From NCBI RefSeq assembly GCF_033568475.1, contig NC_133121.1, forward strand, positions 28,565,374 to 28,629,373: a stretch of 64,000 nucleotides of DNA, read 5' to 3'. Below, in pieces: positions 30,527-62,237 of this stretch. The position numbers were made by a program, and so were the translations under genes. This stretch comes from Henckelia pumila (taxonomy: Eukaryota; Streptophyta; Magnoliopsida; Lamiales; Gesneriaceae). The notes beneath the pieces are model-generated. The model made no database searches. It was given only the letters and a program-made list of their open reading frames with translations, and had not been told where the DNA came from. Positions within the stretch are counted from its first letter, which is position 1, and every line of letters starts with the position of its first letter.

Positions 30527-30527
30527 G

Positions 30528-30539
30528 TGGTATCAGAGC
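30528..30539 (+). other. C2 primer binding site (tRNA-iMet)
   Basis: tggtatcagagc begins two bases after the LTR end and is complementary to the 3' end of initiator tRNA-Met. Confidence 0.9.
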
Positions 30540-30640
30540 AAGGTTGCTCAGATCAAACGATTAAATTAATCGATTGTACAAAAATTTTTGGGTCTTGGTT
30601 TTTTAAAACAAAATAAATATTTTAAATAAAAAAATTTTTT

Positions 30641-30960
30641 TTCGGGCAAAACCCGGGCAGCGATTGGATCGCTGCCCGGTGGGGCAGCGACGGTCACTGC
30701 CCCGGGCGGCGCACGTCGCCGCCCAGGGGCGGCGCTCAGCGCCGCCAGGGCAGCGCTCGGCGCTGCCCAGCGCAGCGCAGCGCAGAGCGCTGCCCAGGGC
30801 GGCGCACAGCGCCTCCCAGGGGCGACGCTCGGCGCCGCCCAGGGCAGCGCACGGCGCCGCCAGGGCAGCGATTGTCGCTGCCCTAAAGGGGCAGCCGGGC
30901 TGCCCCGGCCCGCGCCCACGGGTGCGGGCCGGCCCGGGAGTGTCCCGGGCGGCCCGCGGG
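30641..30960. repeat. GC-rich palindromic repeat block in C2 leader
   Basis: About 320 bp of very high G+C in an AT-rich element, built from repeated and inverted gggcagcg / cgctgccc and ggcgcc-type units. C3 has only about 110 bp in the same place (42107-42215). Open frames through this block on both strands are by-products of the repeats. Confidence 0.85.
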
Positions 30961-31969
30961 AAAAATTATTTTTTTATTTAAATTAATTTTAATGTGTTAA
31001 AATTTTATTTTTGGTCCGGTCAAAAATTGTTTTTGATTGGTTCACGAGGCATCGGATCGAATTGTTCGAGTCCGAAAATTTTAAAATTGATTTTTGGATA
31101 AATTTGAATTTTTGGAAAATTTTAATATTTTATCCTTAAATTGAATTTTGAAATCAATTATTTTTGGTACAATTGATGATAAGATTTGATCTTATGTATA
31201 TATTAGATAAAATATGATTTTATTTAATAAAAGGTAAAATATGATTTTATATGTAAAATATGATTTTATATATAAAATATGATTTTATCCTGTTTAAATT
31301 TAAATTGCCATATGCATGATATCCAATGAATTAATTTTGAATTAAATGTTATTGGATAAGGATGATCGATTGCCATGACCAATTTTGTAGGTGTATGTTA
31401 GGAATTTACATTTGTTTTATTGTTGTTGGTTTTATTAATGGGCCTGGTTTATGGCCCAATATGAATGTCATATGTAATAAAAGTGGGCTTGGTTTATGGC
31501 CCGTTCCCACCCCTAAAATGTATCCCCTACTTGTCATTGCTATTTATTGTAAATACATTAGATTTAGTGGGAGATCAAGATTTGAAGATGGTGGGCCCAG
31601 CAGACAATAAAGACGAAGAAATGTAAATTGGAAGCTAATGTAATAGGATTGCATTGCATACTGCATATTACCTAGGATTGGACTAAGACTCGTGATTGGC
31701 AACCACGAGTCAATTAGAAATGGAATCGATCATCCTATATATAATATATGATATTATGATTGTATGCATGTTTTAGACATAATTGCGTGAATCCGGCAAG
31801 CATGCAATAATTTGAAATTGATGAGACAAATTTTTATAATTAAAAATCCCTCATTTTAAATATGATTTAAAATTGATATCAAGATAAATAAAGGAAATTT
31901 AAATTTGTTTAAATATTCCTACCTTCCATCAACGGTCAATGTATGAGATGCTACCCGCGGATACGGTCC

Positions 31970-32250
31970 GGCTCATATTATTGGGGGGGCCCGTTCGTCG
32001 GAAAGCTGTACATTGGATCGACAAATGTTGTAAGTTGGGTGGAACTCCCATGGGATCGGCTCATATTATTGGGGGATCCACATGGCGACCGTCCATCACA
32101 ACTTAATATTGATGGGTCATCTTGACATGTCACTTTAAACGGCATCATATTATTGGGCCCTTATTGGACATGAGGTAAATACATGGGGGTTGCTTTGGAA
32201 GCAATTGGGCTCTACCTTTTGAGAATTATGGTTGGCTGATATTATTCGGG
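31970..32250 (+). repeat. Four-fold leader motif upstream of C2 gag
   Basis: GGCTCATATTATTGGG and close variants occur at 31970, 32058, 32141 and 32234, about 190-470 bp before the gag ATG. The spacing (88, 83, 93) is almost the same in C3. Role unknown; packaging, dimerisation or translational control are possibilities. Confidence 0.75.
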
Positions 32251-32440
32251 ACCATAAGTTTGTCAATTGGACTCCATGTTCTCACTAAGAAAAAAGTTTC
32301 CCGTTTTCACTAGAGGGTAGTGAAATCGTTAAAATAGTGGGAGTGAGATTCATAAAATTAAATTCGCCTATTTTATGTCTTAGTAAATTGCTTAAACAAT
32401 CATTGATATATGTCTGTTTTTCTTTTCAGTATTTCATACA

Positions 32441-35400
32441 ATGAATTCGCGTAATCCATTATTCTCGATCCTCGAACAAAACAAGTTGACTGGCGCAAAC
32501 TATACGGAATGGTTCCGGAAGTTGAAGATTGTCTTGACTTCGGAGAAGATGCTCTACGTGTTAGAGAAATCACCTCCGAAGGAAGCACCAGCTGACGTAA
32601 GTCCGGAGGAATTGGCCAAACTTGATGCATGGTGGGACCATGACATCAAGACCAAATGCTATATGCAAGCCTCGATGTCTGATGAACTCCAGAGGCGATT
32701 TGAGGACACCGTGAATGCTGCTGACATTCACGCTCAACTCAAGGAACTTTTTGGGGCTCAATCGAGGGCTGAAAGGTTCGCTACTGTTAAGGAGCTAATG
32801 ACGTGTCGCATGCGTGAAGGGACTTTGGTCCGTGATCATGGGGTACGAGTGATTTGGCTCATACAGAAGTTAGCAACTCTTGATTTGGTGTTGGAGCATG
32901 AACTCAACGTGGATTTACTGCTTCTGTCTCTTCCTTCTTCGTTTGACGGATTTGTGGTAAATTTTAATATGAACAAGATAGAGGCCACCCTTGAAGAGAT
33001 GGTCAATATGCTTGTGACATATGAATCCACACTAAAGAAGGATAAACCAGCTTTCTTGGTGGGCTCCTCATCTTCTGCTAAGAAGGGGCCAAGTACGAAG
33101 GGTAAGAAACGTTCTGCCCCACCCAAGAAAGTCGAACCCGAGAAGAAGCACAAGACAAAGGCTTCAAACAATGGAAAATCCAAGGATGTTTGCCATTACT
33201 GCAAGAAGCCCGGTCATTGGAAGCGCAATTGCAAGGAATATCTAGAGCAGTTGGGAACTGCAAAGGGTATGTTCTATATTGAAATAAACATTTCACTTAA
33301 TACTACTTCTTGGGTATTGGATACCGGATGTGGATCTCACATTTGCAATGATTTGCAGGTGATGACAAGAAGTCGCAGGCTTAGAATGAGTGAGACCCAG
33401 CTGAGGCTCGGGAATGGTTCCAGAGTTGAAGCTACAGCCATTGGAGATGTTTGTTTAATTTTGCAGAACGGTTTTAAGTTATTTTTAAGAGATGTTTTAT
33501 TTGTTCCGGATTTAATTAAAAACATTATTTCTGTTTCTATGCTAGATAGAGATGGTTATTCTTGCAATTTTGTGAATGGGATTTGCAATATTTACAAGAA
33601 TGAATGTTTGATTGGAAATGGACAACTTGAAAACGATCTATACAACTTAAAACTAAAAGACGTTCCAATAAATTATGTTGATAAACCGGCGACAACAAAC
33701 AAAAGGAAAATCGATAGCCAAAACCCGGCAAACCTTTGGCACGCTAGGCTAGGTCATATTTTCTCAAGAAGGATGAACAAGCTAGTGGGAGAGGGCATGT
33801 TTGATATGTCTGATATTAACTCTCTACCTACTTGTGAATCCTGTCTAAAAGGAAAAATGACTAAATCTCCTTTTAAGGGGAAACCTGAGCGTAGTCAAAA
33901 TCTGTTGGATTTGATCCATACAGATGTTTGTGGTCCATTTAGAGTTGGGACTCAATATGGCCACACCTACTTCATTACCTTTACTGATGATTATTCAAGG
34001 TATGGGTATTTATATTTAATGAAATATAAGTCTGAAGCATTTGAAAAGTTCAAAGAATTCAAGGCTGAAGTAGAAAACAAGCTAGGTAAAAGTATTAAAG
34101 CACTTAGATCGGATCGAGGTGGAGAATACTTGAGTACCGAGTTTTTGGACTATCTGAAAGAGAATGGGATTCTTTCTCAGTGGACTCCTCCTATGACACC
34201 ACAGCTGAATGGTGTATCGGAGCGTCGTAATCGAACTTTGTTGGACATGGTTCGATCCATGATGAGCTTCACTGAGCTTCCACCTTCATTTTGGGGCTAT
34301 GCGCTTGAAACGACGGTATTGTTGTTGAACAACGTCCACACTAAAGCAGTGGACAAAACACCATACGAGTTATGGAATGGCAAAGCTCCTAAGTATTCGT
34401 ACTTGAGGATTTGGGGATGTCCTGCTTACGTGAAGCGGACAGTGGGAGATAAGTTGGATAGTCGATCCAGCTTATGTTATTTTGTAGGGTATCCGAAGAA
34501 TTCAATCGGATATTATTTCTATTATCCTGCTGAAACAAAGGTGTTTGTTTCAAGGAATGCCACCTTCTTGGAGAAGGAGTTCTTATTGGATAAGAAAGGC
34601 GAGATGATGGAACTCGAAGAAATTCGAGAAGAACCCGAAATACAAAATAACGATCCTACACCTCAGGAACCATTACTGGACACGCCTGAACCTAGAAGAT
34701 CCGAGAGGACTTCTAGACCTCCTGTTCGATATGGTCTTCTTCTTGAAGGGGATCAAGATGAACCCGACATTGGATGTGATCCAAGAAACTTCAAGGAAGC
34801 AATTTCTGATGCGGATTCAAATATATGGCTTGAAGTTATGCAGTCTGAATTGGATTCAATGCATACAAACCAAGTTTGGTCTTTAGTAGATCCTCCTGAT
34901 GGAATTGTTCCAATAGGGTGTAAATGGATCTACAAGAGAAAGCTTGGGCCTGATGGTAAGGTATTGACCTACAAGGCGCGATTGGTGGCGAAAGGTTACA
35001 CTCAAAGACAAGGAGTTGACTATGATGAAACCTTTTCACCAGTTGCAATGTTCAAGTCCATAAGAATCCTTATTGCCATAGCTGCATGGTATGACTATGA
35101 GATATGGCAAATGGATGTGAAGACTGCTTTTTTTAATGGAGACATTAAGGAAGAAATCTATATGAAGCAGCCGGAGGGGTTCACATCCATGGGAAGCGAG
35201 CATAAGGTATGCAAGCTTCAGAGATCAATTTATGGTCTAAAACAAGCATCAAGAAGTTGGAACCAGAAATTTGATGAAACAATAAAAGATTTTGGTTTCA
35301 TCAAGAACCCGGAGAAACCGTGCGTGTACAAGAAAGTAGTTAAGGATGCTGTGACATTCTTAGTACTTTATGTTGATGACATCCTACTCATTGGGAATGA

Positions 35401-36354
35401 TGTAGGGATGTTGCAGTCAACAAAGATATGGTTATCAGGTAGATTCTCGATGAAGGATTTGGGTGAGACATCCTACATTCTTGGGATACAGATCTATAGA
35501 GATAGATCTAAGAGAATGATAGGACTCACTCAATCAACCTACATCGACACCATATTGAAACGGTTTTCAATGGATGGGTCCAAGAGAGGACATCTACCCA
35601 TGTGACATGGAGTTTCTTTATCCAAGTCTATGTGTCCCAAGACTGATGCAGAGATAGAGAATATGACACATGTACCATATGCGTCAGCTATAGGTAGTAT
35701 CATGTATGGGATGATATCTACCAGATCGGATGTAGCATTTGCTCTGAGTGTCACGAGCAGATATCAGGCTAATCCTGGTCAAATGCATTGGAAAGCCGTG
35801 AAGGACATTCTTAAGTACTTACGAAGGACTAAGAATATGTTCATGGTATATGGAGGACGAGATCTGAAATTGGAAGGCTATACCGACTCTAGCTTCCAAA
35901 GTGACGTGGATGACTCGAAGTCAACCTCTGGATTTGTGTTCATGCTCAATGGCGGTGCTGTCTCTTGGAAGAGTTCCAAGCAGGACACCACAGCGGATTC
36001 CACCACTGAGGCTGAATACATTGCAGCATCAGCTGCTGCTAAAGAGGCCGTTTGGATGAGGAAGTTCGTCCAAGAGTTGGGCGTCATTCCTGAATTGTTG
36101 GTCCAGTCCCGGTGTACTGTGACAACACGGGTGCCGTTGCTCAAGCAAAGGAACCAAGGTCTCATCAAAGATCCAAACACGTACTGAGGAAATACCACAT
36201 CATCCGGGAGATTGTGGAAAGAGGAGACATCACTGTCGAACGAGTGGCCTCTACAGACAATATCGCTGATCCGCTTACTAAGCCCTTGCCAGGACCATTG
36301 TTTGACAAACATCGCGAAGCAATGGGTCTACGTAGTATGACTAGTTGGCTATAG
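32441..36354 (+). pseudogene. C2 gag-pol, nearly intact but broken at RNase H
   Basis: A 1054-codon frame runs from the ATG at 32441 to a TGA at 35603. Domains: copia gag (residues 1-245); zinc knuckle CHYCKKPGHWKRNC (251-264); aspartic protease with WVLDTGCGSH (Asp 294); GAG-pre-integrase LWHARLGH (about 431); integrase core with HTDVCGPF, FTDDYSRYGY and SDRGGEY; and reverse transcriptase with YVDD at 977-980. After the TGA the same frame continues into RNase H (DSSFQSD, TTEAEYIAA) until a 1-bp deletion near 36092. The last part (36112-36354) lies in another frame and ends ...MTSWL. At the TGA site sister C3 encodes cysteine (TGT), so one substitution explains the stop. Confidence 0.95.
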
Positions 36355-36368
36355 GGCAAGTGGGAGAT

Positions 36369-36432
36369 TGAAAGAGTGGGTGCCCAGTGAGCCAACTTGT
36401 GGCTATGGGCTTTGATGACTCTTTGTACAAAC
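36369..36432 (+). repeat. C2 right LTR remnant (64 bp)
   Basis: The sequence matches the first 64 bases of the left LTR and then ends at ctttgtacaaac. The next bases (tcataaacccgag...) are G1 LTR. About 1.8 kb of LTR is missing, so no target duplication can be scored. Confidence 0.9.
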
Positions 36433-37356
36433 TCATAAACCCGAGCCCGGCCCGTTTAAAGCCTAAAATTCAGAACCTAACTTGTGCAAAAATCTGCACA
36501 CGACCAGCCTCTTAAAACAGCTGCGGTCGCGGGAATCCGGCCACCACCGGCCAGAGAACCACCCCCAGACCTATCCCACATCCATACGGTTCTAACCCAA
36601 CAAATTTGACTTTAAACGGAGCCCTGTAGAAGGAGAACGAACCAAAACAATCTAGCCATAGTTTCTGCTCGCGCGCAGAACGCATGCACTGACTTCAGGC
36701 CATTCGATCGTCTAGCTCCAGCCACCACCTGCCGGAACACCACCTGGAGGACCTTTCACAAGGTCTTGGGGTTCTAACCCAACTGGAATCAGACCCTAAC
36801 TCGCCCTGTGGACCAAGAACGAGCCATCACACGCAAATTATTCAATATGCGACCAAACCTGTGTCCAGCTCGATCCTAGCCCAAACCAATTACTAAATCC
36901 ACTGGACCATCATCAAAACACGACCCTAAGGACCCAAATTAAGACCACAAACCGAAGTACAGCAGTCCCGATAAATCCATGATTAGAAAACTCATAAAAC
37001 TTGAGCCATATGCATCAAAAACTTGATAACATGCATGAACCATGAATAATATCATTCAAATCTGAAAAACACATGCATTAACAGATCATTCATATTAAAA
37101 AATACTGTATATGATTTAAATGGTGGCCAAGAATGAATTCGAGACGTGCCTTTACGTTATTTACGCTCGAATTTACATTTTCATCGCGTAGATCGTAGTC
37201 CGGGACAAACGGGGCAATGAATCTTAAATATTTCTTCAAAGTTCACGTGAAAAGTGTGTGAGAGTGCAAGGGAGGCGGCTGCAAATCTGATCTGAGGGCT
37301 AGGTTGACGTGAATATGGGTGGAGAAGAATGAAAGCGAAATTAACTTATTTATTTG

Positions 37357-39034
37357 GTGTTGGAAGTTCACAAGGTGCGGGATCATCGAGATCAATGGCT
37401 CAATCTGTGAGACAGACATCTTCTGTTCATTCATTCCAACCACAGACTCAACAACAAGGTAAACAAGAAGGAAGTCAGACTGTGAGTCAACCTCCGAGAC
37501 AACAAGCTCGAGTGTTTGCTTTGACTGAGGAGCAGGCACAGGCATCACCTGATGATGTGATAGCAGGTACTTTTTTTCTTTGCGGTTATCCTGCTTATGT
37601 GCTAGTTGATATAGGAGCTTCTCATACCTTTATTTCTGAAAAATTTGCGTTATTGCATTCATTTTCTGTTGAATCTTTATCTGCTATTGTGTCTATTTCT
37701 TCACCTTTGGGAAAAGGTATAATGTCGATGAAATCAGTTAGAAAATGTACATTGCAATATGATGATAATGAGATTGAAATAGACTGTATTGTTCTTGGTT
37801 TGTCCGACTTTGATTGTATTATCGACATCGACATGTTAACCAAGTACAGGGCTACAGTTGATTGTGTTCAGAAGGTTGTACAGTTCAGACCTGAGATGAC
37901 TGATGAATGGAGATTTTATGGTAAAGGTTCAAAATCTCGTATTCCTTTGATATATGTTCTATCCATGACACGTTTATTGCAGAAAGGAGCAGAGGGATTT
38001 CTTGTATATGCAGTAGATGTAACAAAAACTAGCCCGAAATTGGATGATTTGCCAGTGGTTAGTGAATTCGCTGATGTCTTTCCTAATGAGATTTTAGGAT
38101 TGCCTCAATTTCGAGAGATAGACTTCAACATTGAACTGATGTCAGGTACACAACCTATTTCAAAAGCACCCTACCAAATGACACCAGTTGAATTGAAAGA
38201 GTTGAAAGAACAGTTGGAAGATATATTGGCCAAAGGGTACATTAGACCGAGTGTCTCTCCTTGGGGTGCACCGGTAATTTTTGTACGAAAGAAGGACGGA
38301 ACAATGAGATTGTGCATAGACTACCGACAACTGAACAAGGAAACGGTAAAGAATCATTATCCTTTACCTAGAATTGATGACTTGTTTGATCAGTTGCAGG
38401 GTTCGTCGGTATATTCTAAAATTGATTTGAGATCCGGCTACCATCAATTGAGAGTAAGAGATGAAGATGTATCGAAAACTGCTTTTCGAACGAGGTATGG
38501 TCACTTTGAATTCATTGTAATGCCGTTTGGTTTGACGAATTCTCCAGCGGTATTTATGGGTCTTATGAATCGAGTGTTTCAGAAATATCTTGATGATTTG
38601 TTATCATATTTATTGATGATATTCTGATCTATTCCAAAAACCTATGTGATCATGCTGACCATTTGAGAACAATTCTGAAGACGTTGAGAGCAGAAAAACT
38701 GTATGCCAAGCTATCAAAATGTGAATTTTGGTTGCGGAAGGTAGTATTTCTTGATCATATTATATCCGAAGACGGTATTTCTGTTGATCCGAGTAAGGTT
38801 GAAGCAGTGATCAGTTGGCCTAGACCGACGTCTATACCAGAGATACAAAGTTTTATGGGTTTAGCAGGTTATTATCATCGCTTTATTAAAGATTTCTCGA
38901 GTATTGCCAAACCTATTACTCAACTCACTCAGAAAAATGCACCGTATATCTGGACTGAGGCTTGTGAAGATAGTTTTATTGAATTGAAGAAGATGCCGAC
39001 ATGTGCACCAGTCTTGACTATCCCTTCGGACTAT
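37357..39034 (+). pseudogene. Ty3/gypsy pol fragment patched into G1 3' LTR
   Basis: Opposite in orientation to G1, this 1.68 kb piece encodes the end of gag (Q/S-rich linker), an aspartic protease with [10 protein letters not shown] (usual DTGASH, so the catalytic-triad Thr is Ile), and a reverse transcriptase ([39 protein letters not shown]). A 1-bp loss at about 38602 shifts the frame just before the FIDD catalytic motif. The frame then continues through the thumb (FMGLAGYYHRFIKDFS) to an abrupt end near 39034. RNase H, integrase and LTRs are absent. It resembles the del/Tekay-type gypsy elements, and G2 at 62.2 kb encodes a related protease. In the intact G1 LTR the same point (52314-52331) carries just 11-17 bp of ordinary LTR. 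Confidence 0.9.
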
Positions 39035-39529
39035 GCTTTAAAATTAATTAAATCAAGTTTAAAACTTTTAAGACCACTAAATATTCAGATTTAAAACTCT
39101 AAATTTTCGTAATATATAATTAATTATTGGCTTTTGAAAGTATCTTAAAAGCCCATAAAATGGCCTATTTTAGTGAAAATTGGACTTTTATACATATATA
39201 TATACATTAAAACTTCTATTTTTTGAAAATAAAATCTTAAAATAATATAATTTAAGACTCTTAAAAATCCTAGACAATTTTTGGATGGAAATTTCTATCT
39301 CGTTCATCTACAATCCCGTCTACGCGATCGCAAAAATATCTTTTCTCAAATAAATTCACAAATTTCATAATATCGGGTTAAATGCTATAATAACTTTAAA
39401 ACATGCACATAAATCACATAATTCACATAACAGCACATAAAAATCATTAAACCCCTTATTTTTAATTTTAAAATCATTAAATCTCATAGTTATACATGCG
39501 AGTTTACGTAACGAATTTCCGGCGTTACA

Positions 39530-39546
39530 ATTCTCCCCCCTTAAAT
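39530..39546 (-). other. G1 polypurine tract
   Basis: On the minus strand an ...aaggggggagaat run lies immediately before the 3' LTR start (TGTAACGCC at 39529). It would prime plus-strand cDNA synthesis. Confidence 0.75.
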
Positions 39547-40092
39547 GGAATTTTGTCCTTGAAATTGCAGTAAGCACCGAATAGATCCGAAACTTCAGCC
39601 ACCGAAACTTGATCATAGGAATATTTGGCGTATTAATAAAATCCTCTCGCCAACCATGGTTAAGTAATTACATCTATAATGTGCTCAAAGTACCGCGATC
39701 ACCTCATCATAACCTTGCACCATGTTTTGCAACTCTTGCACTTGGTTTTGTGCATGCAAGTTTTGAGTGTTGAGGGCTTGCACTTGGCCTTCTAATTCTT
39801 GTATGCGAGTATCAGACTCGTGGCCACTGGGCTTCATTGCGTGCAGCTTGTTGGACCGCGGTTCGAAGTTCCTTCATTTTAGTCGTTCTTTGGTTATTCA
39901 GTTCTTCATATTCAGCGACGGTAGCTAAGGACGACTCTATCTTTCTTTTAGTCTTCCCATGCTTCTCTTCCTCCTTATCAAGATAGTAAGCAAATCTTTC
40001 TACGTCGGCTTTGAGGTGATTCCTATGTTCCTCTATCTCGCTTTTGTTTGCCTTGCAACGTCTTCATGTTCTCGATCAGTTCCTCTTTTGCA

Positions 40093-40097
40093 CGTTT
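40093..40097. repeat. C3 target-site duplication (CGTTT)
   Basis: CGTTT at 40093-40097 and again at 49452-49456, directly outside the two C3 LTRs. An exact 5-bp duplication is the norm for copia integration. Confidence 0.95.
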
Positions 40098-41995
40098 TGA
40101 AAGAGTGGGTGCCCGGTTAGCCAACTTGTGGCTAAGGGCTTTTGTGACTCTATGTATAAACAATCTTTGTTTAATATAATTTACATTCATTAATGGCATT
40201 TTCTTTGTCTTTCTTCATATTTTTATATTGTGATATACTATTGATGTTTTGATAAAGACCTTGAATATACTATAGTGTAAGTAAGATGAGATAGTGAATA
40301 AAGAGAGATCACTATTATGAAACACATCTTATAGTCACTGTATATTCTAAACAGTTTCTAGTCAATTGAGCCGTCCGCTAATAAGGATAAGGATCGCTCG
40401 AGATTGAGACTAGCATTTGTGATGCCAAGTACCACGTTTCATTGGTAATGGACATGGAGATGTTCAAAGCATGCAAATGGATATTCATATGATGAATGAT
40501 CGAACTACCCTATTCGGACTTTCCAAGTGGTTATCACTTATCGAGTGGATAAAATCCGCGGTTTTGGTTGTACACCATTAGTCCTTACTACTTGAAACAT
40601 CATTGAGACTCTATATGCTAGTACTGTACTTTGACTCGTTTACCGACTTTATTGGGGTCATCAGGTGTCGGAATTGGGTACAGTTACGACACATATAGGA
40701 GTCGATGCTTTGTTGTCAAGGATTCACCACATACTTGCGAGTGTGGATATCCTATGCGATCTGAGTAGATATTAGTGTGACAAATCTCTGGCCAGAGTAC
40801 ATGATGTGTTTTAGGTTACTCGGTTTTCCTAGTAACACATGCGATGTCACTATTTGATCTCCAAGATGTGATGCATATTTATCGAATCTCGAACGACTCT
40901 CGATGCACCAATGGTTGTTGATTCGATCGGGATATATGGATGAAGGTACCGTACTGTACGCTAACCAAAATCTACTGGTTCTTGCAGAAACTATCAGTGA
41001 TACCTAGGGAATCATGGGGCGATGTTGCTAGACGCTCTTACCATGATTCGTTGGGCAAGTCGGAAATTGTTGTTCCGAGTCACAAGGAGTTGTGAGCCCA
41101 CGGCTAGCTGTATCCCTGAACCATTGAGGGTCACACAAGTAATGGATTACTAAACCCCGTTGAGATAGTTAAATTTAAAGAGTTAAATTTAATGAAAGAG
41201 AAGTTGGACTTCTTAACTAAAAGGGAGTGGAATTTCCTAAAATGACATAGGGATGGGCATTTTTGGAAATCACTGAATTCGGATTCAGAAAAATTATCTT
41301 GACTCTAAAAGATGCAGAAATGGTTTCTGTGCACATTGGTGAAATCAGTTTATCAATCGGAGTCACGATGAATTTTATATTAATTTATATATTAACAGGC
41401 TTGGCTTGTTGGGCTTGAGTTATGGATTGTGGGCCCTAAGGAGTTAGTGTCCTAATACAATCATAACTTAATCTAGTCTAGAAATTATCTATAAATACAT
41501 GTGTAGTGTTCGAAAATCAAAAGAATTCGTCTCTTGCAATTTTTGAAATCACACATATATTTTTAAGGGGAATTTTCGAAAATCTCTCTGTCCCTTTAGA
41601 GAAAATTCGGTCTGTGATTTTTGTGAAAAATTACATTCCGAATTAACAGATCAAATCTGTTTATTCTCATCGATAAACATCTGATTGATTTCTAGTGCAA
41701 TCAATCAGAGGGTTTCTGTTTTCTGTTCGTGGACCTTATTCCGGAGATTGATCGTGAAGCCATCGGTTCCCGGGATATACAAGAAGAGCAGATTAAATTT
41801 TGTTGGTGTCCATAATCAAGCCGTTGCTTGAATAGGTAAAAATTTAATTGTGATTTTATTTTTTACTTGCATAATTTAATCGTAAAGTTTTGATACCCAT
41901 GATATGGAATCGTTCCATAGCAAAAAATAAAAATTTTTAAACTTCCGCTGCACCGGGTATCAATTCTTAATTGATCTGAACACGTTATTCCAACA
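40098..41995 (+). repeat. C3 left LTR
   Basis: 1898 bp, TGAAAGAGTGGG...CCAACA, with a TATA box (tataaata) at 41490-41497. Confidence 0.95.
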
Positions 41996-41996
41996 G

Positions 41997-42008
41997 TGGT
42001 ATCAGAGA
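41997..42008 (+). other. C3 primer binding site (tRNA-iMet), altered end
   Basis: tggtatcagaga follows the LTR. C2 and C1 have tggtatcagagc, so the last paired base or bases are changed in C3. Confidence 0.8.
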
Positions 42009-43156
42009 CAGGTTGCTCAGATCAAACGATTAAATTAATCGATTGTACAAAATATTTGGCCTCGGTTTTTTGAAAACAAAACGAATTTTAAAAATTAAAA
42101 TTTTGACGGAACAGGGGCATTGGGGCAGCGATGAAGCTGCCCGCCTCCACATGGGCAGCCCTGTCCCACGTGGAGGAGGGGGATGCCCGGGAATGTCCCG
42201 GGCAGTCCGGGAAAAATTAAAATTGATTTTTTAATTAAAATTTTAATATTTTGGAATTTTAGTTTTTGGTCCGATCGAAAATTATTTTTGATTGGTCCAC
42301 GAGGCATCAGATCAAATTGTTTGAGTCCGAAATTTTTAAAATTGATTTTTGGATAAATTTGAATTTTTGGAAAATTTGTAAATCTTATCCGTTAAATTAG
42401 ATTTTATAAAATTAATTATTTTGGTACCATTGATGATAAGATATGATCTTATGAATGTATTAGATAAAATATGATTTTATCTTTTAATTATGATGTCATT
42501 GCATGTTATCCAATATTTTAATTATTGGATAAAAGGATGATCGATTGTCATGACCAATATTTTAGGTGTATGTTAGGTAATTTACATTTGGTTTTATTGT
42601 TGTTGGGTTTTATTAATGGGCTTGGTTTATAGCCCAAATTTGAATTGTCATTTGTAATAAAAAGTGGGTTTGGTTTATGACCCGTTCCCACCCCTTAAAT
42701 ATGTATCCCCTACTTGTCATCAAAATTTATTGTAAATTTGTTAGACTTAGTGGGAGATAAAGATTTGAAGACAATGGTGGGCCCAGCAGACGATAAACAC
42801 CGAAGAAATGTAAATGGAAGCTCAATGTAATAGGATTGCATTGCATACTTGCATATCACCTAGGATTGGACTTAGAATCGTGATTGGCAACCACGGGTCG
42901 ATTAGATAATGGGATCGATCATCGTTAAATAATATATGATATTATTGATGTATGCATATTTAGACTAAATTGTATGAATCCCGCAAGCATACATAAATTT
43001 CATGATGAGACAGATTTTCAAAAATTAAAAATCCCTCATTTTAAATATGATTTAAAATTGATATCAAGATAAACAAAAGGGAATTTAAATATTGTTTAAA
43101 TATTCCTACCTTCCATCAACGATCAATGTATGAGATACTACCCGCGGGCACGGTCC

Positions 43157-43436
43157 GGCTCATATTATTGGGGGGGCTCGTTCGTCGAAAAGCTGTACAT
43201 TGGATCGACACATGTTGTAAGTTGGGTGGAACTCCCATGGGATTGGCTCATATTATTGGGGATCCACATGGCGACCGTCCATCACAACTTAATATTGATG
43301 GGTCATCTTGACATGTCACATTAAACGGCGTCATATTATTGGGCCCTTATTGGACATGAGGTAAAAACATGGGGGTTGCTTTGGAAGCAATTGGGCTCTA
43401 CCTTTTGAAAATTATGTTTGGCTGATATTATTCGGG
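43157..43436 (+). repeat. Four-fold leader motif upstream of C3 gag
   Basis: GGCTCATATTATTGGG-type motifs at 43157, 43245, 43327 and 43420 (spacing 88, 82, 93), matching the set in the C2 leader. Confidence 0.75.
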
Positions 43437-43627
43437 ACCATAGTTTGTCAATTGGACTCCATGTTCCCACTAAGGAAACAAGTTTCCCGTTTTCACTAGA
43501 GGGTAGTGAAATCGTTAAAATAGTGGGAGTGAAATTCATAAAATTAAATTTTGCAATATTTTATGTCTTAGTAAATTAATTAAGGAATCACTGATTATTG
43601 TCTGTTTCTTTTCAGTATTTCATTACA

Positions 43628-46600
43628 ATGAATTCGCGAAATCCACTATACTCAATTCTCGAACAAAACAAATTGACTGGCGCAAACTATACGGAATGGT
43701 TCCGTAAATTAAAGATTTTTCTAAACTCGGAGAAAATTTTCTACGTGTTAGAAAAGAATCCTCCAAAGGAAGCACCGGCTAATATAAGTCCGAAAGAATT
43801 GGCAAAACTTGATCAATGGTGGGACCATGATGTCAAGGCTAAATGCTATATGCAAGCTTCAATGTCTGATGAACTCAAGAGGCGATTTGAGGATGTCGTG
43901 AATGCTGCTGACATACACATGCACCTCAAGGAACTTTTTGGAGCTCAGTCAAGGTAGGAGAGGTATGCCACCGTCAAAGAGCTCATGACATGCCGCATGC
44001 GAGATGGGACTTCGGTCCGTGAGCATGGGGTACACATGATTGGGTTCATTGAAAAATTGGTAACACTCGATTTGACTTTGGAGCATGAACTAAACGCGGA
44101 CTTGTTGCTTCTTTCCCTTCCTTCGTCGTTTGACAGATTTGTGGTGAACTTCAATATGAACAAGATAGAGGCCATCCTTGAAGAGATGGTCAATATGCTT
44201 GTGTTTTATGAGGCCACATTAAAGAAGGATAAACCGGTACTTTTGGTTGGCTCCTCTTCTTACTCCAAGAAGGGGCCAAGTGGAAAAGGTAAGAAACGTT
44301 CTGCCCCACCCAAGAAAATTGTACCACAAAAGAAGGCCAAGACAAAAGCTTCAAACGTGAACATATCTGGAGATGTTTGCCATCACTGCAAGAAACCCGG
44401 TCATTGGAAACGTAACTGCAAGGAATACCTCGAGCAGTTGCAAACTGCAAAGGGTATGTTTTACATTGAAATAAATGTTTCACTTAATACTACTTCTTGG
44501 GTATTGGATACCGGATGTGGATCTCATATTTGCAATGATTTGCAGGTGATGACAAGAAGTCGCAAGCTTAGGATGGGTGAGACCCAGCTGAGGCTTGGAA
44601 ATGGTTCCAGAGTTGAAGCCAAAGCAGTGGGAGACGTTTATTTAGTTTTGCAGAACAATTTTAAGTTATTTTTTAGAGATGTTTTATTTGTGCCAGATTT
44701 AGTTAAAAACATTATTTCTATTTCTATGCTTGATAGAGATGATTTTTCTTGTAATTTTGTGAATGAGATTTGCAATATTTACAAGAATGAATGTTTGATT
44801 GGAAATGGACAACTTGAAAACGATCTATATAACTTAAAATTAAAAGACGTTCCAATTAATTATGTTGATAAATCGGTAACAACAAATAAAAGGAAAAACG
44901 ATAGCCAAAACCCGGCAAACCTTTGGCATGCTAGGCTAGGTCATATTTCCTCAAGGAGGATGAACAAGCTAGTGGGAGAGGGCATGTTTGATATGTCTGA
45001 TATTAACTCTCTACCTACTTGTGAGTCCTGCCTAAAAGGAAAAATGACTAAATCTCCTTTCAAAGGGAAGCCTGAGCGTAGTCAAAACCTGTTGGATTTG
45101 ATCCATACAGATGTTTGTGGACCATTTAGTATCGGCACTAAATTTGGACACACCTACTTCATTACCTTTACTGATGATTATTCGAGGTATGGGTATTTAT
45201 ATTTAATGAAATATAAGTCTGAATCATTTGAAAAGATCAAAGAATTCAAGGCTGAAGTAGAAAACAAATAAGGTAGAAGTATTAAAGCACTTCGATCGGA
45301 TCGAGGTGGAGAATACTTAAGTAACGAGTTTTTGAGCTATCTAAAAGAGAATAGGATTCTCTCTCAGTGGACTCCTCCTATGACACCTCAGCTGAATGGT
45401 GTCTCGGAGCGTCGCAATCAAACTTTGTTGGACATGGTTCGATCTATGATGAGCTTTACTGAGCTCCCACCTTCGTTTTGGGGCTATGCGCTTGAAACGG
45501 CGGTATTGTTGTTAAACAATGTCCACAATAAAGCAGTAGATAAAACTCCATACGAGTTATGGAATGGCAAAGCTCCTAAGTATTCGTACTTAAGAATTTG
45601 GGGATGTCCTGCTTACGTGAAACAGACAGTGGGAGATAAGTTGGATAGTCGATCCACCTTATGTTATTTTGTAGGATATCCGAAGAATTCAATCGGATAT
45701 TATTTCTATCATCCTTATGAGACAAAAGTGTTTGTTTCGAGGAATGCCACCTTCATGGAGAAGGATTTCTTATCAGATAAGAAAGGCAAGATGATGGAAC
45801 TCGAAGAAATTCGAGAAGAACCCGAGATACAAAATAACGACCACACACCTCAAGATCCTTCAACGGACACGCCTATATCTAGGAGATCCGAGAGGACTTC
45901 TAGACCTCCTGTTCGATATGGTCTTCTTCTTGAAGGAGATCAAAGTGAACCCGACATTGGATATGATCCAAGAAACTTCAAGGAAGCAATTTATGATGCA
46001 GATTCTAATTTATCGCTTGATGATATGCAATCGGAAATAGACTCGATGCATACAAACCAAGTTTGGTCTTTAGTAGATCCTCTCGATGGAATTGTTCCAA
46101 TAGGGTGCAAATGGATCTACAAGAGAAACCTTGGGTCTGATGGTAAGGTACTTACCTACAAGGCACGATTGGTAGCAAAAGGTTATACTCAAAGACAAGG
46201 AGTTGACTATGATGAAACCTTTTCACCAGTCGCAATGTTCAAGTCCATAAGAATCCTTATTGCCATAGCAGCATGGTATGACTATGAGATATGTCAAATG
46301 GATGTGAAGACTGCATTTCTTAATGGAAACATTAAGGAAGAAATATATATGATGCAGCCCAAGGGATTCACATCCATGGGAAGCGAGCATAAGGTATGAA
46401 AGCTTCAGAGATCAATTTATGGTCTCAAACAAGCATCAAGAAGTTGGAACCAGAAATTTGATGAAACAATAAAGGACTTTGGTTTCATCAAAAACCCGGA
46501 GAAATCGTGCGTGTACAAGAAAGTAGTTAAGGATGCGGTGACATTCTTAGTGCTTTATGTTGATGACATCCTACTCATTGGGAATGACGTAGGGATGTTG

Positions 46601-47542
46601 CAGTCAACAAAGATATGATTATCAGGTAGATTCTCAATGAAGGATTTGGGTGAGGCATCCTATATTCTAGGGATACAGATCTATAGAGATAGATCTAAGA
46701 GAATGATAGGACTCACTCAAGCAACCTACATCAACACCATATTGAAAAGATTTTCTATAGATGAGTCCAAGAGAGGACATCTACCTATGTGTCATGGAAT
46801 TTCTCTATCCAAGTCTATGTGTCCCAAGACTGACAAAGAGATAGAGAAAATGACACACATACCATATGCGTCAGCCATAGGTAGTATTATGTATGAGATG
46901 ATATCTACCAGACCAGATGTAGCCTTTGCTCTGAGTGTCACGAGCAGATATCAGGCCAACCCCGGTCAAATGCATTGGAAAACCGTGAAGGATATTCTTA
47001 AGTACTTGAGAAGGACTAAGAATATATTCATGGTTTATGGAGGAAGAGAATTGAAATTGGAAGGCTATACCGACTCTAGCTTTCAAAGCGACGTGGATGA
47101 CTCGAAGTCAACCTCTGGATTTGTATTCATGCTCAATGGTGGTGCTGTCTCTTGGAAGAGTTCTGAGCAAGACACCACAGCGGATTCCACCACTGAGGCA
47201 GAATACATTGCAGCATCAGCTGCTGCTAAAGAGGCCGTTTGGATGAGGAATTTCGTCCAAGAGTTGGGCATAATTCCTGAAGCTGTTGGTCCAGTTCCGG
47301 TGTACTGCGACAACACTGGTGTCGTTGCTCAGGCAAAGGAACCAAGGTCTCATCAAAGATCCAAACACGTACTGAGGAAATACCACATCATCCGGGAGAT
47401 TGTGGAAAGAGGAGGCATCACTGTCGAGAGAGTGACCTCTACAGACAATATCGCTGATCCACTTACTAAGCCCTTGCCAGGACCATTGTTTGACAAACAT
47501 CGCGAAGCAATGGGATTGCGTAGTGTGACTAGTTGGCTTTAG
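43628..47542 (+). pseudogene. C3 gag-pol, one frame with four nonsense codons
   Basis: The frame from the ATG at 43628 to the natural stop at 47540 (1305 codons) is uninterrupted by indels. It contains four in-frame stops: TAG 43955, TAA 45269, TGA 46397 and TGA 46616. Domain order is as in C2: gag, zinc knuckle CHHCKKPGHWKRNC, protease WVLDTGCGSH, GAG-pre-integrase, integrase, RT with LYVDDILLIG (about 46555) and RNase H ending ...VTSWL. At the last two stops C2 reads TGC and TGG, so single changes suffice. At the RNase H region where C2 is frameshifted, C3 is intact. Confidence 0.95.
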
Positions 47543-47556
47543 GGCAAGTAGGAGAT

Positions 47557-49451
47557 TGAAAGAGTGGGTGCCCGGTTAGCCAACTTGTGGCTAAGGGCTT
47601 TTGTGACTCTATGTATAAAGAATATTTGTTTAATATAATTTACATTCATTAATGGCATTTTCTTTGTCTTTCTTCATATTGTTATATTGTGATATACTAT
47701 TGATGTTTTGATAAAGACCTTGAATATACTATAGTGTAAGTAAGATGAGATAGTGAATAAAGAGAGATCACTATTATGAAACACATCTTATAGTCACTGT
47801 ATATTCTAAACAGTTCTTAGTCAATTGAGCCGTCTGCTAATAAGGATAAGGATCGCTCGAGATTAAGACTAGCATTTGTGATGCCAAGTACCACGTTTCA
47901 TTGGTAATGGACATGGAGATGTTCAAAGCATGCAAATGGATATTCATATGATGAATGATCGAACTACCCTATTCGGACTTTCCAAGTGGTTATCAATTAT
48001 CGAGTGGATAAAATCCGCGGTTTTGGTTGTACACCATTAGTCCTTACTACTTGAAACATCATTGAGACTCTATATGCTAGTACTGTACTTTGGCTCGTTT
48101 ACGGACTTTATTGGGGTCATCAGGTGTCGGGATTGGGTACAGTTACGACACATATAGGAGTCGATGCTTTGTTGTCAAGGATTCACCACATACTTGCGAG
48201 TGTGGATATCCTATGCAATCTGAGGAGATATTATTGTGACGAATATCTGGCCAGAGTACATGATGTGTTTTAGGTTACTCGGTTTTCCTAGTAACAGATG
48301 CGATGTCACTATTTGATCTCCAAGAAGTAATGCATAGTTATCGAATCTCAAACGACTCTCGATGCACCAATGGTTGTTGATTCGATTGGGATATATGGAT
48401 GAAGGGACCGTACTGTACGCTAACCAAAATCTACTGGTTCTTGCAGGCACTATCAGTGATACCTAGGGAATCATGGGGCGATGTTGCTAGACGCTCTTAC
48501 CATGATTCGTTGGGCAAGTCGGAAATTGTTGTTTCGAGTCACAAGGAGTTGTGAGCCCACGGCTAGCTGTATCCCTGAACCATTGAGGGTCACACAAGTA
48601 ATGGATTACTAAACCCCATTGAGATAGTTAAATTTAAAGAGTTAAATTTAATGAAAGAGAAGTTGGACTTCTTAACTAAAAGGAAGTGAAATTTCCTAAA
48701 ATGACATAGGGATGGGCATTTTTGAAAATCACTGAATTCGGATTCAGAAAAATTATCTTGACTCTAAAAGATGCAGAAATGGTTTCTGTGCACATTGGTG
48801 AAATCAGTTTATCAATCGGAGTCACGATGAATTTTATATTAATTTCTATATTAACAGGCTTGGCTTGTTGAGCTTGAGTTATGGATTGTGGGCCCTAAGG
48901 AGTTAGAGTCCTAATACAATCATAACTTAATCTAGTCTAGAAATTATCTATAAATACATGTGTAGTGTTCGAAAATCGAAAGAATTCCTCTCTTGCAATT
49001 TTCGAAATCACACATATTTTCAAGGGAAATTTTCGAAAATCTCTTTGTCCCTTTAGAGAAAATTCGGTCTGTGATTTTTGTGAAAAATTACATTCCGAAT
49101 TAACAGATCAAATCTGTTTATTCTCATCGATAAACATCTGATTGATTTCTAGTGCAATCAATCAGAGGGTTTCTGTTTTCTGTTCGTGGACCTTATTCCG
49201 GAGATTGATCGTGAAGCCATCGGTTCCCAGGATATACAAGAAGAGCAGATTAAATTCTGTTGGTGTCCATAATCAAGCTGTTGCTTGAATAGGTAAAAAT
49301 TTAATTGTGATTTTATTTTTACTTGCATAATTTAATCGTAAAGTTTTGATACCCATGATATTGAATCGTTCCATATCGAAAAATAAAAATTTTTAAACTT
49401 CCGCTGTACCGGGTATCAATTCTTAATTGATCTGAACACGTTATTCCAACA
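47557..49451 (+). repeat. C3 right LTR
   Basis: 1895 bp, the same ends as the left copy, followed directly by the CGTTT duplication. Confidence 0.95.
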
Positions 49452-49763
49452 CGTTTCTCAAGATCCAATGAAGCTCTAAGTGATCCGATGACTAGAGTTT
49501 TGTCACGAATAATGTTATGGACATCCTCGTGTATAACGCATCTTGGAGACATACTGTAACCCCATAAATCCCTCACGTAACCGCAATGCATAACTAAGTA
49601 TTTTATCTTAAAATTTTCATACTTAAAATTTTCATAACATAAAATTCTCATAACATAAATCATGTGCCCCTACATAAAACATAACTTAAAACATTTAAAC
49701 TCACAGACTGGCAGTACGGCTTCTGAGCTCCATGTAGCAACCTAGTCACCCTCCAAAGACCAT

Positions 49764-49776
49764 GACTCTGATACCA
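49764..49776 (-). other. G1 primer binding site (tRNA-Met)
   Basis: Minus strand tggtatcagagtc, two bases after the 5' LTR end. It shows that the adjoining LTR is the 5' one and sets the minus-strand orientation of G1. Confidence 0.85.
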
Positions 49777-49778
49777 AT

Positions 49779-52700
49779 TGAAACGATCCAAAACTACTAC
49801 TGAATTTTTTATATATATACATTATTCTATTTCTTTACCTTAAAATATTATTACTATATATATATATATATATATATATCATACTTAAAATAAATTAAAT
49901 AACTTAATATACACTATATAAATATATGTGTATATTACATGAAATTAAATAACATGAAATTAATTACTAAATCATGATAAAATTTCATGCATAAAATCCC
50001 AACAACTAAATATTTAAATAAATTTCTTCAACAAATCCATGCAAACTAGAAAATAAATACGTAAATCTAAAAGTCCATGCATACCCTCAAACTTATATAT
50101 ATATTAAAACATACGCGGAAAAAATTATTTTAACTCTCAAAACATCAATATCATAAATAAGCTATCGTCACGGGTCTGCTAGCTGCCTGGATACTCATAC
50201 GCCCACGCCGCCAGTCGGGACCACATTTTCTTCATTATTCTCAGGTTCACTTGCACCATTTAAATCTAGTGAGCCTAGAGGCTCAACACGTTCTATCCTT
50301 ACGTAACAACATGAAACCACATACAAACACACATCATATAAAATATCGTGAATATACTTATATGTGCATGATCTTAAAAACATAGGCATATAAACATGTA
50401 TCTCTTAAACATAAACATTATCATCATACTTTATCATAAACCTTATGCTTAATACGTCTCATAAAATGGCATGTCTTAAATTCTCAAATCTCAACAGGTC
50501 GTATCCATATCGGTGAACTCATACTTAACGATTGATCAATCATAATACCAACGTACGTGGCGGTGGGGTTTCCACTTCTGTGCTGCTACTTCACCAGCAC
50601 TCAATGTTGGATCCATAAGCTCATTATAACATAAATATTATCAGGAAGGTCATCGGGCCCAAGTAACCTGGCCTCCAACCACATCACTTTCCACCTTCAC
50701 TTCAATTTCCATAAAAACATTATTTTTCTTAACATGCCCTTAAACTTAACATAAAAGTTCTTACATGATGCATGAACTTAAAAATTCTCATTATTTCTTT
50801 ATTTCATGAAAATTTGCCCGTAAATATATATTTAATTTATTTTCTTAAAAATCATACTTATATATAATAAAAATATGTGCATGAGTTAGATATATATTTA
50901 CGAACCTTTTATTTTTTCAAGGACTTGTTCGAGCTGCTCACCCCTTAAACTTAACTCATACATTTCTAGGCTGGTCCAATAATTCTCATGGACCCTCAGG
51001 CCCATGAAAACTAATGGGCTCACATAAAATATTATTTAAGTCCATTTAAATTAATTAACTCAAAATTAATCCAATAATTCTTAACTAGCCCATAAACGCT
51101 TAAACCGGCCCATTAACTAAACATTAGCCCATTTAAATTACTAAACCAGACATAACTTGACCCAATAATTCTCATGTGTCACTCGGTCCATGACAAATTA
51201 ATGGGCTCACTTCATTAATTAATTAAGCCCAAATTTACAATTAAACTATCCCAATTAATTAATTAACCAAATCCAAACCTATTAATTATTAACTTAATCT
51301 CTTATTTAATTTAAAATAAAATATTCTAGCCCAACTAATATAACCCAAACCCGACTAACTTGGCCCATAAAATTTTAAGACCCAACCCGAACCTATAAGC
51401 CCGAGCCCGGCCCGTTTATAGCCCAAAATTCAGAACCTAACTTCTGCAGAAATCTTCGCACGACCAGCCTCTTAAAACAGCTGCAGCCGCCAGAATCTGG
51501 CCACCACCGGCCGGAGAACAACCACCCAGACCTAGCCCACATCCAGACGGTTCTAACCCAACAATTTGACCTTAAACGGAGCCCTGTAGAAGGAGAACGA
51601 ACCAAACAATCTAGCCCTAGTTTTTGCTCGCGTGCAGAACGCATGCATTGAATTCAGGCCATTCCGTCTCCCAAATCCGGCCACTAACGACCAGAACACA
51701 ACCTAGAGGAGATTCCCCAAGGTCTTGGGGTTCTAACCCAACTAGAATTAGACCCTAACTCGCCCTGTGGACCAAGAACGAGCCATCACATGCAGACTGC
51801 TCAATATGCGACCAAACCTGTGTCCAGATCAATCCTAGCCCTAACCAATGACTAAAGCCACTAGACCATCATCAAAACATGACCCTAAGGACCCAAATTA
51901 AGACCAAAAACCGTAGTACAACAGTCCCGATCAAGCCATGGTCAGAAAACTCATCAAACTTGAGCCATATGCATAAAAAACGTGATAACATGCATGAACC
52001 TTGAATAATACCATTCAAATCTGAAAAACACATGCATTAACAGATCATTCATATTAAAAATAGTGTATATGATTTAAATGATGTCCAAGAATGGATTTGA
52101 GACGTGCCTTTGCGTTATTTACTCTTGAATTTACGTTACTATCGCGTAGTTCATAGTCCGGGACGAACGGGGCATCGAATCTTCAATATTTCTTCAAAGT
52201 TCATGTGAAAAGTGTGTGAGAGTGTGAGGGAGGCGGCTGCAAATCTGATTTTAGGGCTAGGTTGACGTGAAGATGGGTGGAGAAAAATGAAAGCCAAATT
52301 AACTTATTTATTTGTATAGTATATTGGACTAGGCTTTAAAATTAATTAAATCAAGTTTAAACTTTTAAGCCCATTAAATATTCAGATTTAAAACTCTAAA
52401 TTTTCGTAATATATAATTATTGGCTTTTGAAAGTATCTTAAAAGCCCGTAAAATGACCTATTTTTAGTGAAAACTGGGCTTCTATACATATATATACATT
52501 AAAACTTCTATTTTTTGAAAATAAAATCTTAAAATAATATAATTTATGACTCTTAAAAATCCTAGACAATTTTTGGATGAAAAATTCTATCTCGTTCGTC
52601 CACAGCCTCGTCTACGCGATCGCAAAAATATCTTTTCTCAAATAAATTCACAAATTTCTTAATATCGGGTTAAATGCTATAATAACTTTAAAACATGCAC

Positions 52701-52823
52701 ATAAATAACATAATTCACATAATAGCACATAAAAATTATTTAACTACTTATTCTTAATTTTTAAAATCATTAAATCCCCTAGTTATGCATGCGAGTTTAC
52801 GTAACGAATTTTCGGGCGTTACA
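49779..52823 (-). repeat. G1 5' LTR
   Basis: 3045 bp without insertions. It aligns throughout with the pieces of the interrupted 3' LTR at 27071-39529. A TA tract lies at about 49855-49878. Frames within it have no protein resemblance. Confidence 0.88.
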
Positions 52824-56754: not shown

Positions 56755-57064
56755 TGTAAAGCCCGGAAATTCGCTTACGTAAACCCGCATGCATAATTAG
56801 GGGATTTAACGATTTAAAAATAAGTTAAAAAGTGATTAAATGATTTTATGTGATATTATGTGATTTATGTGCATGATTTAAAACTTTATTTTAGCATTTA
56901 ACCCGTTATTATGAAACTTATGAATTTATTTGAGAAATGTATTTTTCAATCGCGTAGACGGGACCGTGGACGAACGAGAAAGAAAATTTTTACCCAAAAT
57001 ATTTTATTGAGATTTCAAGGGGAGTAAATTATTATTTTAAGATTTTATTTTCAGAAAAATAGAG

Positions 57065-57131
<67 letters not shown>

Positions 57132-62168: not shown

Positions 62169-62180
62169 TGGTATCAGAGC
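62169..62180 (+). other. G2 primer binding site (tRNA-iMet)
   Basis: tggtatcagagc, five bases after the LTR end. Confidence 0.9.
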
Positions 62181-62237
62181 GCATTGTAGCTGGGAATTAG
62201 CAAGTGGATTAATACATTATCTGATGTTATTGATCAG

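What the first reader, a model, noticed from the sequence alone, without database searches (positions are those of the whole stretch)
39530..49778. LTR element whose only gene is a coiled-coil protein
G1 has all cis parts of an LTR retrotransposon (3 kb LTR pair, tRNA-Met site, polypurine tract, near-matching target duplication), yet its about 0.9 kb interior encodes one ORF of about 168 residues with coiled-coil composition and no gag, protease, RT or integrase. Large non-autonomous LTR elements usually carry no ORF or a relic gag. A dedicated coiled-coil ORF suggests a parasite with its own particle or RNA-binding factor, or a captured host exon that became standard cargo. The joined frame is exact across the C3 insertion site, which argues the reading is real.
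Basis: partly seen in the sequence, partly recalled or inferred. Interest (0 to 1): 0.88.

Follow-up and report, generated by a model that had tools for sequence, protein, structure and literature searches.

The report
Retroelement whose only gene is borrowed
This is a worn-out copy of a plant jumping element that cannot move on its own and whose single gene, for a long rod-shaped protein, is related to an accessory gene of another jumping-element family and sits where the usual particle gene should start, so it may be an example of one parasite borrowing a part from another.

Summary
The observation mostly holds. G1 (minus strand) has 3-kb LTRs, a tRNA-Met-type primer site, a polypurine tract, a near-matching target duplication and a ~0.9-kb interior without gag or pol; the frame is in phase across C3. 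But this copy's ORF is not one open frame: two frameshifts break it.

It is homologous to a 163-codon ORF, open in 13 of 15 loci examined, that lies between 5' LTR and gag in a full-length Gypsy family, "P", like the 5' additional ORFs described for Tekay elements. G1's LTR ends, primer site, 5' leader, pol tail and polypurine tract instead match another abundant family, "A", whose gag starts at the AUG where G1's ORF starts. Ten G1-type copies were found; none of the eight read at length has gag-pol. Variants shared among copies have a much lower nonsynonymous/synonymous ratio than singletons (Fisher P = 0.0013), so the protein was probably selected while the family spread.

Best reading: a non-autonomous family on an A-type backbone in which a P-type coiled-coil ORF replaced gag at gag's start codon. 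Close precedents exist (wheat RLG_Sabrina, Tekay 5'aORFs). New variant of a known kind; function unproven.

The parts
49779..52823 (-). 5' LTR of G1 (3045 bp)
49765..49776 (-). primer-binding site TGGTATCAGAGT (initiator tRNA-Met type; tRNA identity recalled)
   Evidence: exact match to the pattern
49553..49764 (-). 5' leader; 34 non-G1-type places match at 81-90%; no blastn match to the leader of family P
49452..49552 (-). start and first ~33 codons of the coiled-coil ORF (ATG 49550-49552), ending at the C3 insertion
40098..49451 (+). C3, nested Copia element with gag-pol; LTRs 97.6% alike; target duplication CGTTT at 40093-40097 and 49452-49456
40026..40097 (-). coiled-coil ORF, second piece (first frame left of C3)
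39815..40045 (-). coiled-coil ORF, third piece (second frame)
   Evidence: AlphaFold one helix
39685..39822 (-). coiled-coil ORF, last piece (third frame); ends earlier than in most relatives
39530..39684 (-). tail: relic of the last codons of pol and the polypurine tract; with the LTR start 80.7% over 83 bp to the A copy
39028..39529 (-). 3' LTR, first block
37357..39027 (+). 1671-bp Gypsy gag-protease-RT fragment inside the 3' LTR; no match elsewhere in the window that would give it LTRs
36435..37356 (-). 3' LTR, second block
28666..36431 (+). C2, nested Copia element; 3' LTR cut to 64 bp
27071..28665 (-). 3' LTR, third block; outer flank TAATT versus GAATT at 52824-52828

Best explanation
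G1 is a decayed, repeatedly invaded copy of a non-autonomous Ty3/Gypsy (Tekay-like) family. Its backbone (LTR ends, primer site, 5' leader, last codons of pol, polypurine tract) is that of an abundant family A that carries gag and pol; in G1 gag-pol is gone. At gag's own start codon sits a coiled-coil coding region homologous to an additional ORF (between 5' LTR and gag) of a second full-length family P. Shown: the homologies, the positions, the absence of gag-pol in the copies read at length, and the constraint pattern. Inferred: (1) the two parts met by template switching between co-packaged RNAs; the donor was P-like, not P itself, because synonymous sites between G1-type and P are saturated; (2) A's Gag, RT and integrase mobilise the family in trans through the shared primer site, polypurine tract and LTR ends; (3) the ORF is translated from gag's former AUG and its product, a long acidic helix that probably self-associates, helps the element's own spread (for example by joining or modifying particles, or by acting on silencing in the nucleus as proposed for Tekay 5'aORFs). 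Step 3 is the weakest.
For: P: ORF of 163 codons in front of gag, open in 13 of 15 loci, gag-motif frame downstream in 15 of 15; 32 places in the genome at 86-100% identity over all or nearly all of the query, 28 of them without stop; gag, protease, RT, RNase H and integrase in the copy read. The best piece of each of the 10 G1-type copies is 50-61% identical to P's ORF, some second pieces as low as 40%, and homology runs through the stop and about 40 nt beyond in 5 of 5 copies tested. A: in L059 LTR end, primer site and leader like G1's, and gag directly at the matching AUG, open for 559+ aa to the end of the stretch (932-aa open frame); its 3' end (L060) matches G1's tail, polypurine tract and LTR start, 80.7% over 83 bp; P's polypurine tract and LTR differ. 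Around the AUG, G1-type and Q-type leaders align and P's does not. Constraint: dN/dS within 10 G1-type copies 0.43 (codon bootstrap 0.31-0.60); shared variants 36 syn: 40 nonsyn, singletons 47: 133, Fisher P 0.0013. Leaving out shared variants whose codon also occurs in the P/N2 copies: 29: 39, Fisher P 0.014. One helix over residues 2-144 in the intact P-type protein, pLDDT 89.9, no alignment used.
Against: None of the 10 G1-type copies is intact from ATG to the usual end, so expression today is unlikely. Sister interiors on the same backbone lack the ORF, and some of them (L048, L056, L057) keep about 15 codons that resemble its start, so loss of the ORF did not stop spread. Related copies are not independent, so the P values are optimistic, and part of the shared variation may predate the merger. 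dN/dS between G1-type and P or N2 could not be computed because synonymous differences are saturated. No transcript, protein or transposition evidence. Only one A copy was read, at both ends; its middle was not, and the search meant to map pol next to such gags did not complete. The name Tekay rests on domain order, a sub-threshold chromodomain match in P (E 0.0021, cut-off 25.1 bits not reached) and recall, not on an RT tree. The heptad test is only moderate for the intact forms (P 48, N2 73, L003 22 of 2000 shuffles at window 28).
Confidence: 0.72

Rival explanations
1. Plain internal deletion: an older element with G1's LTRs had leader, coiled-coil ORF, gag and pol in line; G1-type lost gag-pol, while the A/Q families lost the ORF. 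No recombination between families.
For: P, N2 and the third family (L039) have the ORF in front of gag; N2 shows that such deletions happen, with pol removed down to about its last 50-60 bp.
Against: No G1-LTR element with both ORF and gag among 8 G1-type places read at length, 11 usable Q places and the 1 A place; these are samples of large families. G1's ORF is 50-61% identical to P's in the best pieces whereas the Q-type gag matches P's gag at only 33-38% over short stretches (found in 3 of 5 gag-bearing Q copies), the reverse of what common descent of both would suggest. The ORF start coincides with gag's AUG in A and Q1.
Confidence: 0.2
2. The ORF is a passenger: retained because a short interior is simply what is left, with no function in the non-autonomous family.
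For: All 10 copies are now broken; sister backbones without the ORF (L048, L049, L052, L053; and ~0.53-kb interiors L056, L057) also spread.
Against: Shared variants are depleted of nonsynonymous changes relative to singletons, also after leaving out codons seen in P/N2.
Confidence: 0.2
3. Captured host exon.
For: Coiled-coil composition; LTR elements do capture host sequence (recalled).
Against: The ORF's matches whose surroundings were read lie in LTR elements (P, N2, L039, G1-type); not all 125 matches were examined. The only database hit (P0002) comes from a contig of this genome's length and is P-type. No Pfam family above cut-off.
Confidence: 0.03
4. Chance open frames, not a gene.
For: 48 of 2000 shuffles reach as far with two frame switches.
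Against: Open homologues in many places and dN/dS 0.29 within P.
Confidence: 0.01

Closest known systems
5' additional ORF (5'aORF) of Tekay chromoviruses, sunflower Tekay 13-2 and grass RIRE3/Retrosat-2 (PMC11728184, passages read)
   Same: Extra ORF between 5' LTR and gag, conserved within the family, helical segments, function unknown: matches family P here.
   Different: Sunflower protein is ~400 aa, proline-rich and largely disordered; here 163 aa in P, acidic, predicted as one long helix. The passages describe it in gag-pol elements, not as the only gene of a non-autonomous family.
RLG_Sabrina non-autonomous variants NA2-NA8 of wheat (PMC9744471, section 2.7 read)
   Same: Same LTR backbone with the gag region replaced by different short coding segments; helper family elsewhere.
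   Different: There four of the short proteins had no homology to other wheat proteins and two resembled viral capsid proteins in 3D; here a source family and the place of the exchange (gag's AUG) can be named.
TR-GAG and other single-protein elements (PMC9784723, passages read)
   Same: Two LTRs, one ORF, needs a helper. The Q1-type (gag only) is of this kind, N2 (ORF plus gag) close to it.
   Different: The single ORF of G1 is an accessory ORF, not gag or a pol domain.
RLG_Quinta / RLG_Cereba of wheat (PMC11302176, passages read)
   Same: Autonomous/non-autonomous pair recognised by shared LTR ends and primer site.
   Different: Quinta keeps gag plus a domain of unknown function.
LARD elements (recalled)
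   Same: Long LTRs, no gag-pol.
   Different: LARD interiors are described as non-coding.

Membership tests
LTR retrotransposon | LTR pair with TG..CA ends, primer site, polypurine tract, target duplication | tested here: met
   duplication only 4 of 5
Non-autonomous derivative of family A | same LTR ends, leader, primer site, pol tail and polypurine tract | tested here: met
   (one A copy), supported by Q copies
Non-autonomous derivative of family A | mobilised by A proteins | not testable with these tools
   needs an experiment
Tekay 5'aORF | ORF between 5' LTR and gag in a gag-pol element | tested here: met
   for family P; in G1 itself gag is absent
Tekay 5'aORF | element belongs to the Tekay clade by RT phylogeny | not tested
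   no named reference RTs at hand; chromodomain in P below cut-off
Tekay 5'aORF | sequence similarity to sunflower or grass 5'aORFs | not tested
   sequences not held; the paper itself reports no amino-acid similarity between sunflower and grass ones
TR-GAG | single ORF is gag | tested here: not met
   no gag domain in G1's ORF pieces
LARD | non-coding interior | tested here: not met
   ORF homologous to open P ORF and constrained, though broken in this copy
RLG_Sabrina-type modular set | same backbone, different interiors | tested here: met
   coiled-coil, gag-only, no-ORF and ~0.53-kb interiors with one leader type and similar LTR starts

The most novel reading that the evidence does not exclude
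A retrotransposon parasite replaced gag by a rival family's accessory coiled-coil gene at gag's own start codon, and natural selection kept that protein while the parasite spread. The protein would then be an element-encoded adaptor that makes a foreign helper's particles or the host's silencing machinery serve the parasite, and would give a clean system to find out what plant 5'aORFs do, since here the ORF acts without its own gag and pol.
Probability: 0.35. Interest if true: 0.78.

Novelty: new variant of a known kind. Interest (0 to 1): 0.55.

Why it matters
The function of plant 5' additional ORFs is open; the ones I saw described are inside gag-pol elements, where loss of the ORF is hard to separate from loss of the rest. 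A family in which the ORF alone was kept under constraint isolates its contribution. It also offers candidate parents and an exchange point for a modular non-autonomous family. I found no report of an LTR element whose sole gene is a 5'aORF in the searches (open-licence PMC only; the survey of Steinbauerova et al. cited is not held), so priority is not established.

Tried and rejected
Protein database: the 76-residue piece of G1 found nothing at E 10 (1 candidate); the N2 form found one protein, a P-type copy labelled Henckelia pumila, so I know of no relative outside this genome. Viral contigs and prokaryote genome contigs: pattern matches, none confirmed. Pfam on ORF pieces and intact forms gave only sub-threshold matches. 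The Gypsy element at the window's end (gag from 62303) was considered as parent and set aside: its primer site (62169) is followed by gag within ~130 bp, and tblastx of G1's interior found nothing there. Unfinished: a protease-RT search to list helpers (not completed) and LTR copy counts (not completed). L058 was fetched on the wrong side and set aside (one search shows a gag match beside that place). L054 (gag 69%, then nothing recognised in 2.9 kb) is unclassified. L036 has ~1.45 kb of unexamined sequence within its interior. L041 has no 5' LTR in the fetched stretch. L009 and L010 were seen only in 3.2-3.3 kb.
Full report
ANATOMY. On the minus strand G1 runs from a 5' LTR (49779-52823) through a primer site (TGGTATCAGAGT, 49765-49776), a leader, an ORF and a polypurine tract (39530-) into a 3' LTR that is now in three blocks (39028-39529, 36435-37356, 27071-28665). 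Its interior is cut by the Copia element C3 (40098-49451, target duplication CGTTT), its 3' LTR by Copia C2 and by a 1671-bp Gypsy gag-protease-RT fragment. Outer flanks TAATT and GAATT agree in 4 of 5. K2P between LTR blocks is 0.075, 0.109 and 0.059 over 1578, 919 and 495 sites; C3's LTRs differ by 0.025. At a recalled rate of 1.3e-8 per site and year, G1 is about 3 million years old and C3 about 1.

THE ORF IN THIS COPY. The codon phase matches at the duplicated CGTTT on both sides of C3, each side read separately. Left of C3 the reading needs three frames, so the copy is broken by two frameshifts; the finding's single 168-residue ORF is not there. With two free switches 48 of 2000 shuffles do as well, so this copy alone proves little. 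The 77-aa piece is predicted as one helix.

THE GENOME. The window is in an 885-Mb assembly. One database protein from a contig with the same length as C3 of this assembly (204334071) is labelled Henckelia pumila, a Gesneriaceae. The G1 interior found 10 close places including itself (the other nine 85-94% in their best piece; 40 of 278 candidates scored, so a lower bound) and a larger set at about 76% in parts of the coding stretch.

FAMILY P. In that second set the ORF is open and lies between the 5' LTR and gag: 163 codons in 13 of the 15 loci fetched (12 with ATG; L029 and L030 broken), with a frame holding a gag motif downstream in 15 of 15. One copy (L033, L034): LTR pieces 98.6-99.0% alike, primer site at L033:7695, ORF 8114-8602, gag from 8836 with Retrotrans_gag, CCHC and protease, then RT, RNase H and integrase in L034. 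tblastn with this ORF gave 125 matches (150 of 298 candidates scored): 32 places at 86-100% over all or nearly all of it, the query's own place included, 28 without stop. Pooled dN/dS within P is 0.29 for the ORF (13 copies) and 0.19 for a 150-codon gag piece (10 copies). The P-type protein is predicted as one helix, residues 2-144, pLDDT 89.9, from a single sequence, net charge -20, no cysteine.

FAMILY N2. A further group at about 60-67% identity has an open frame of about 184 aa in many places. In L045 the ORF (174 codons from its ATG) is followed by gag, but pol is deleted down to about its last 50-60 bp; L046 shows the same start in two successive units. Several members lie in tandem with ~3.9-kb spacing. 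So P, N2 and G1-type form a series: ORF-gag-pol, ORF-gag, ORF only.

G1-TYPE COPIES. Seven other copies were read with 10-kb surroundings: interiors of about 0.9-1.2 kb in six, 2.35 kb in L036 where part was not identified; LTR sequence was found on both sides in 6 of 7 (not L041). In none is there a gag-pol-sized gap between leader and polypurine tract. The stretch from ORF end to polypurine tract is shared between copies (L037 and L043: 77.7% over 457 bp), which fits one origin. Homology to P runs through the ORF's stop and about 40 nt further in 5 of 5 copies tested. Several copies end with the same acidic tail as P (GDGEIID), which G1 and L003 lack.

THE BACKBONE. G1's leader and primer site hit 34 more places at 81-90% whose match stops before the ORF body (40 scored of 1196). 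Of 12 fetched, 11 are usable (L047-L057): gag-only interiors (L047, L050, L055; L051 with an insertion and its end not reached; L054 gag-like but not classified), interiors of one kind without an ORF of 80 aa (L048; L049, L052, L053 with extra unidentified stretches), and ~0.53-kb interiors (L056, L057). tblastx against P pol found none in the ~3 kb read of each; a 58-bp pol-tail match was seen in L057. A tblastn with this gag gave 18135 candidates (150 scored), many with long open frames. One such place, L059, has an LTR of about 2.6 kb whose start matches G1's (68% over 388 bp) and whose end, primer site and leader match, and gag begins at the AUG that in G1 begins the coiled-coil ORF. Its 3' part (L060) has a pol end, then the tail and polypurine tract matching G1 at 80.7% over 83 bp including the LTR start, and an LTR start 98.6% like the 5' one over 561 bp. 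The middle of this copy was not read. P's leader, polypurine tract and LTR do not match G1's. I call this family A; the copy read has no coiled-coil ORF before gag.

SELECTION. Codons of the 10 G1-type copies were compared by in-frame segments only. Pooled dN/dS is 0.43 (codon bootstrap 0.31-0.60); between G1-type and P or N2 synonymous sites are saturated and no value was obtained. Variants seen once (mostly after insertion) show 133 nonsynonymous to 47 synonymous changes, variants shared by two or more copies 40 to 36 (12 stop variants left out; columns with fewer than 4 copies left out); Fisher P = 0.0013. Without shared variants whose codon also occurs in five P/N2 copies it is 39 to 29, Fisher P = 0.014. 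Related copies are not independent, so these P values are optimistic.

HOW IT PROBABLY WORKED. The backbone supplies what must act in cis (promoter LTR, primer site, polypurine tract, integrase-recognised ends) and matches A, so A's proteins are the likely helper; the coding part came from a P-like element, most simply by template switching at gag's start. That the protein-coding sequence was kept while gag and pol were not points to a benefit of the product to the element; that ORF-less interiors on the same backbone also spread shows it was not essential. An acidic long helix does not look like an RNA-binding nucleocapsid; oligomerising adaptor or scaffold is my preferred guess (about 0.3), silencing-related nuclear action as suggested for Tekay 5'aORFs (PMC11728184, passages) the next.

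COMPARISON. Tekay 5'aORFs, Sabrina NA variants, TR-GAG elements and the Cereba/Quinta pair each cover one side of this. The combination - an accessory ORF as only gene, candidate parents named, constraint seen - I did not find in print (searches named under why it matters). It is a new variant of a known kind.

Noticed in passing
own genome C1:18185250-18193617, C2:9928095-9936512, C3:74092093-74108317, C4:208802534-208810958, C1:151272722-151277181: N2-like ORFs in tandem with ~3.9-kb spacing, as if LTR-interior units were amplified by unequal recombination or as multimers; only part of the C3 array was read (L046).
   Followed up: partly
L044 (C2:5158000-) 4660-4950 and 5502-5791: Two pieces of the coiled-coil ORF in inverted orientation about 550 bp apart; could give a hairpin RNA against the family.
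   Followed up: no
window 37357-39027: Gypsy gag-protease-RT fragment inside G1's 3' LTR, opposite to G1's sense, replacing about 10 bp; looks like repair filler.
   Followed up: partly
window 28666-36431: Copia C2 has a ~1.9-kb 5' LTR but only 64 bp of 3' LTR, identical to the 5' one, and no clear target duplication; a 1069-aa gag-pol frame is open.
   Followed up: partly
window 56755-59320 and 62169-64000: Opposite-strand LTR, 66-79% like G1's in pieces, cut off by another sequence; then primer site and gag-protease-RT of a different Gypsy element without coiled-coil ORF before gag.
   Followed up: partly
window 24360-24839: Open frame that reads like ribosomal protein L27a (name recalled, not searched).
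   Followed up: no
own genome C3:6826947-6827453: ORF match reported inside an open frame of 3567 aa; not looked at.
   Followed up: no
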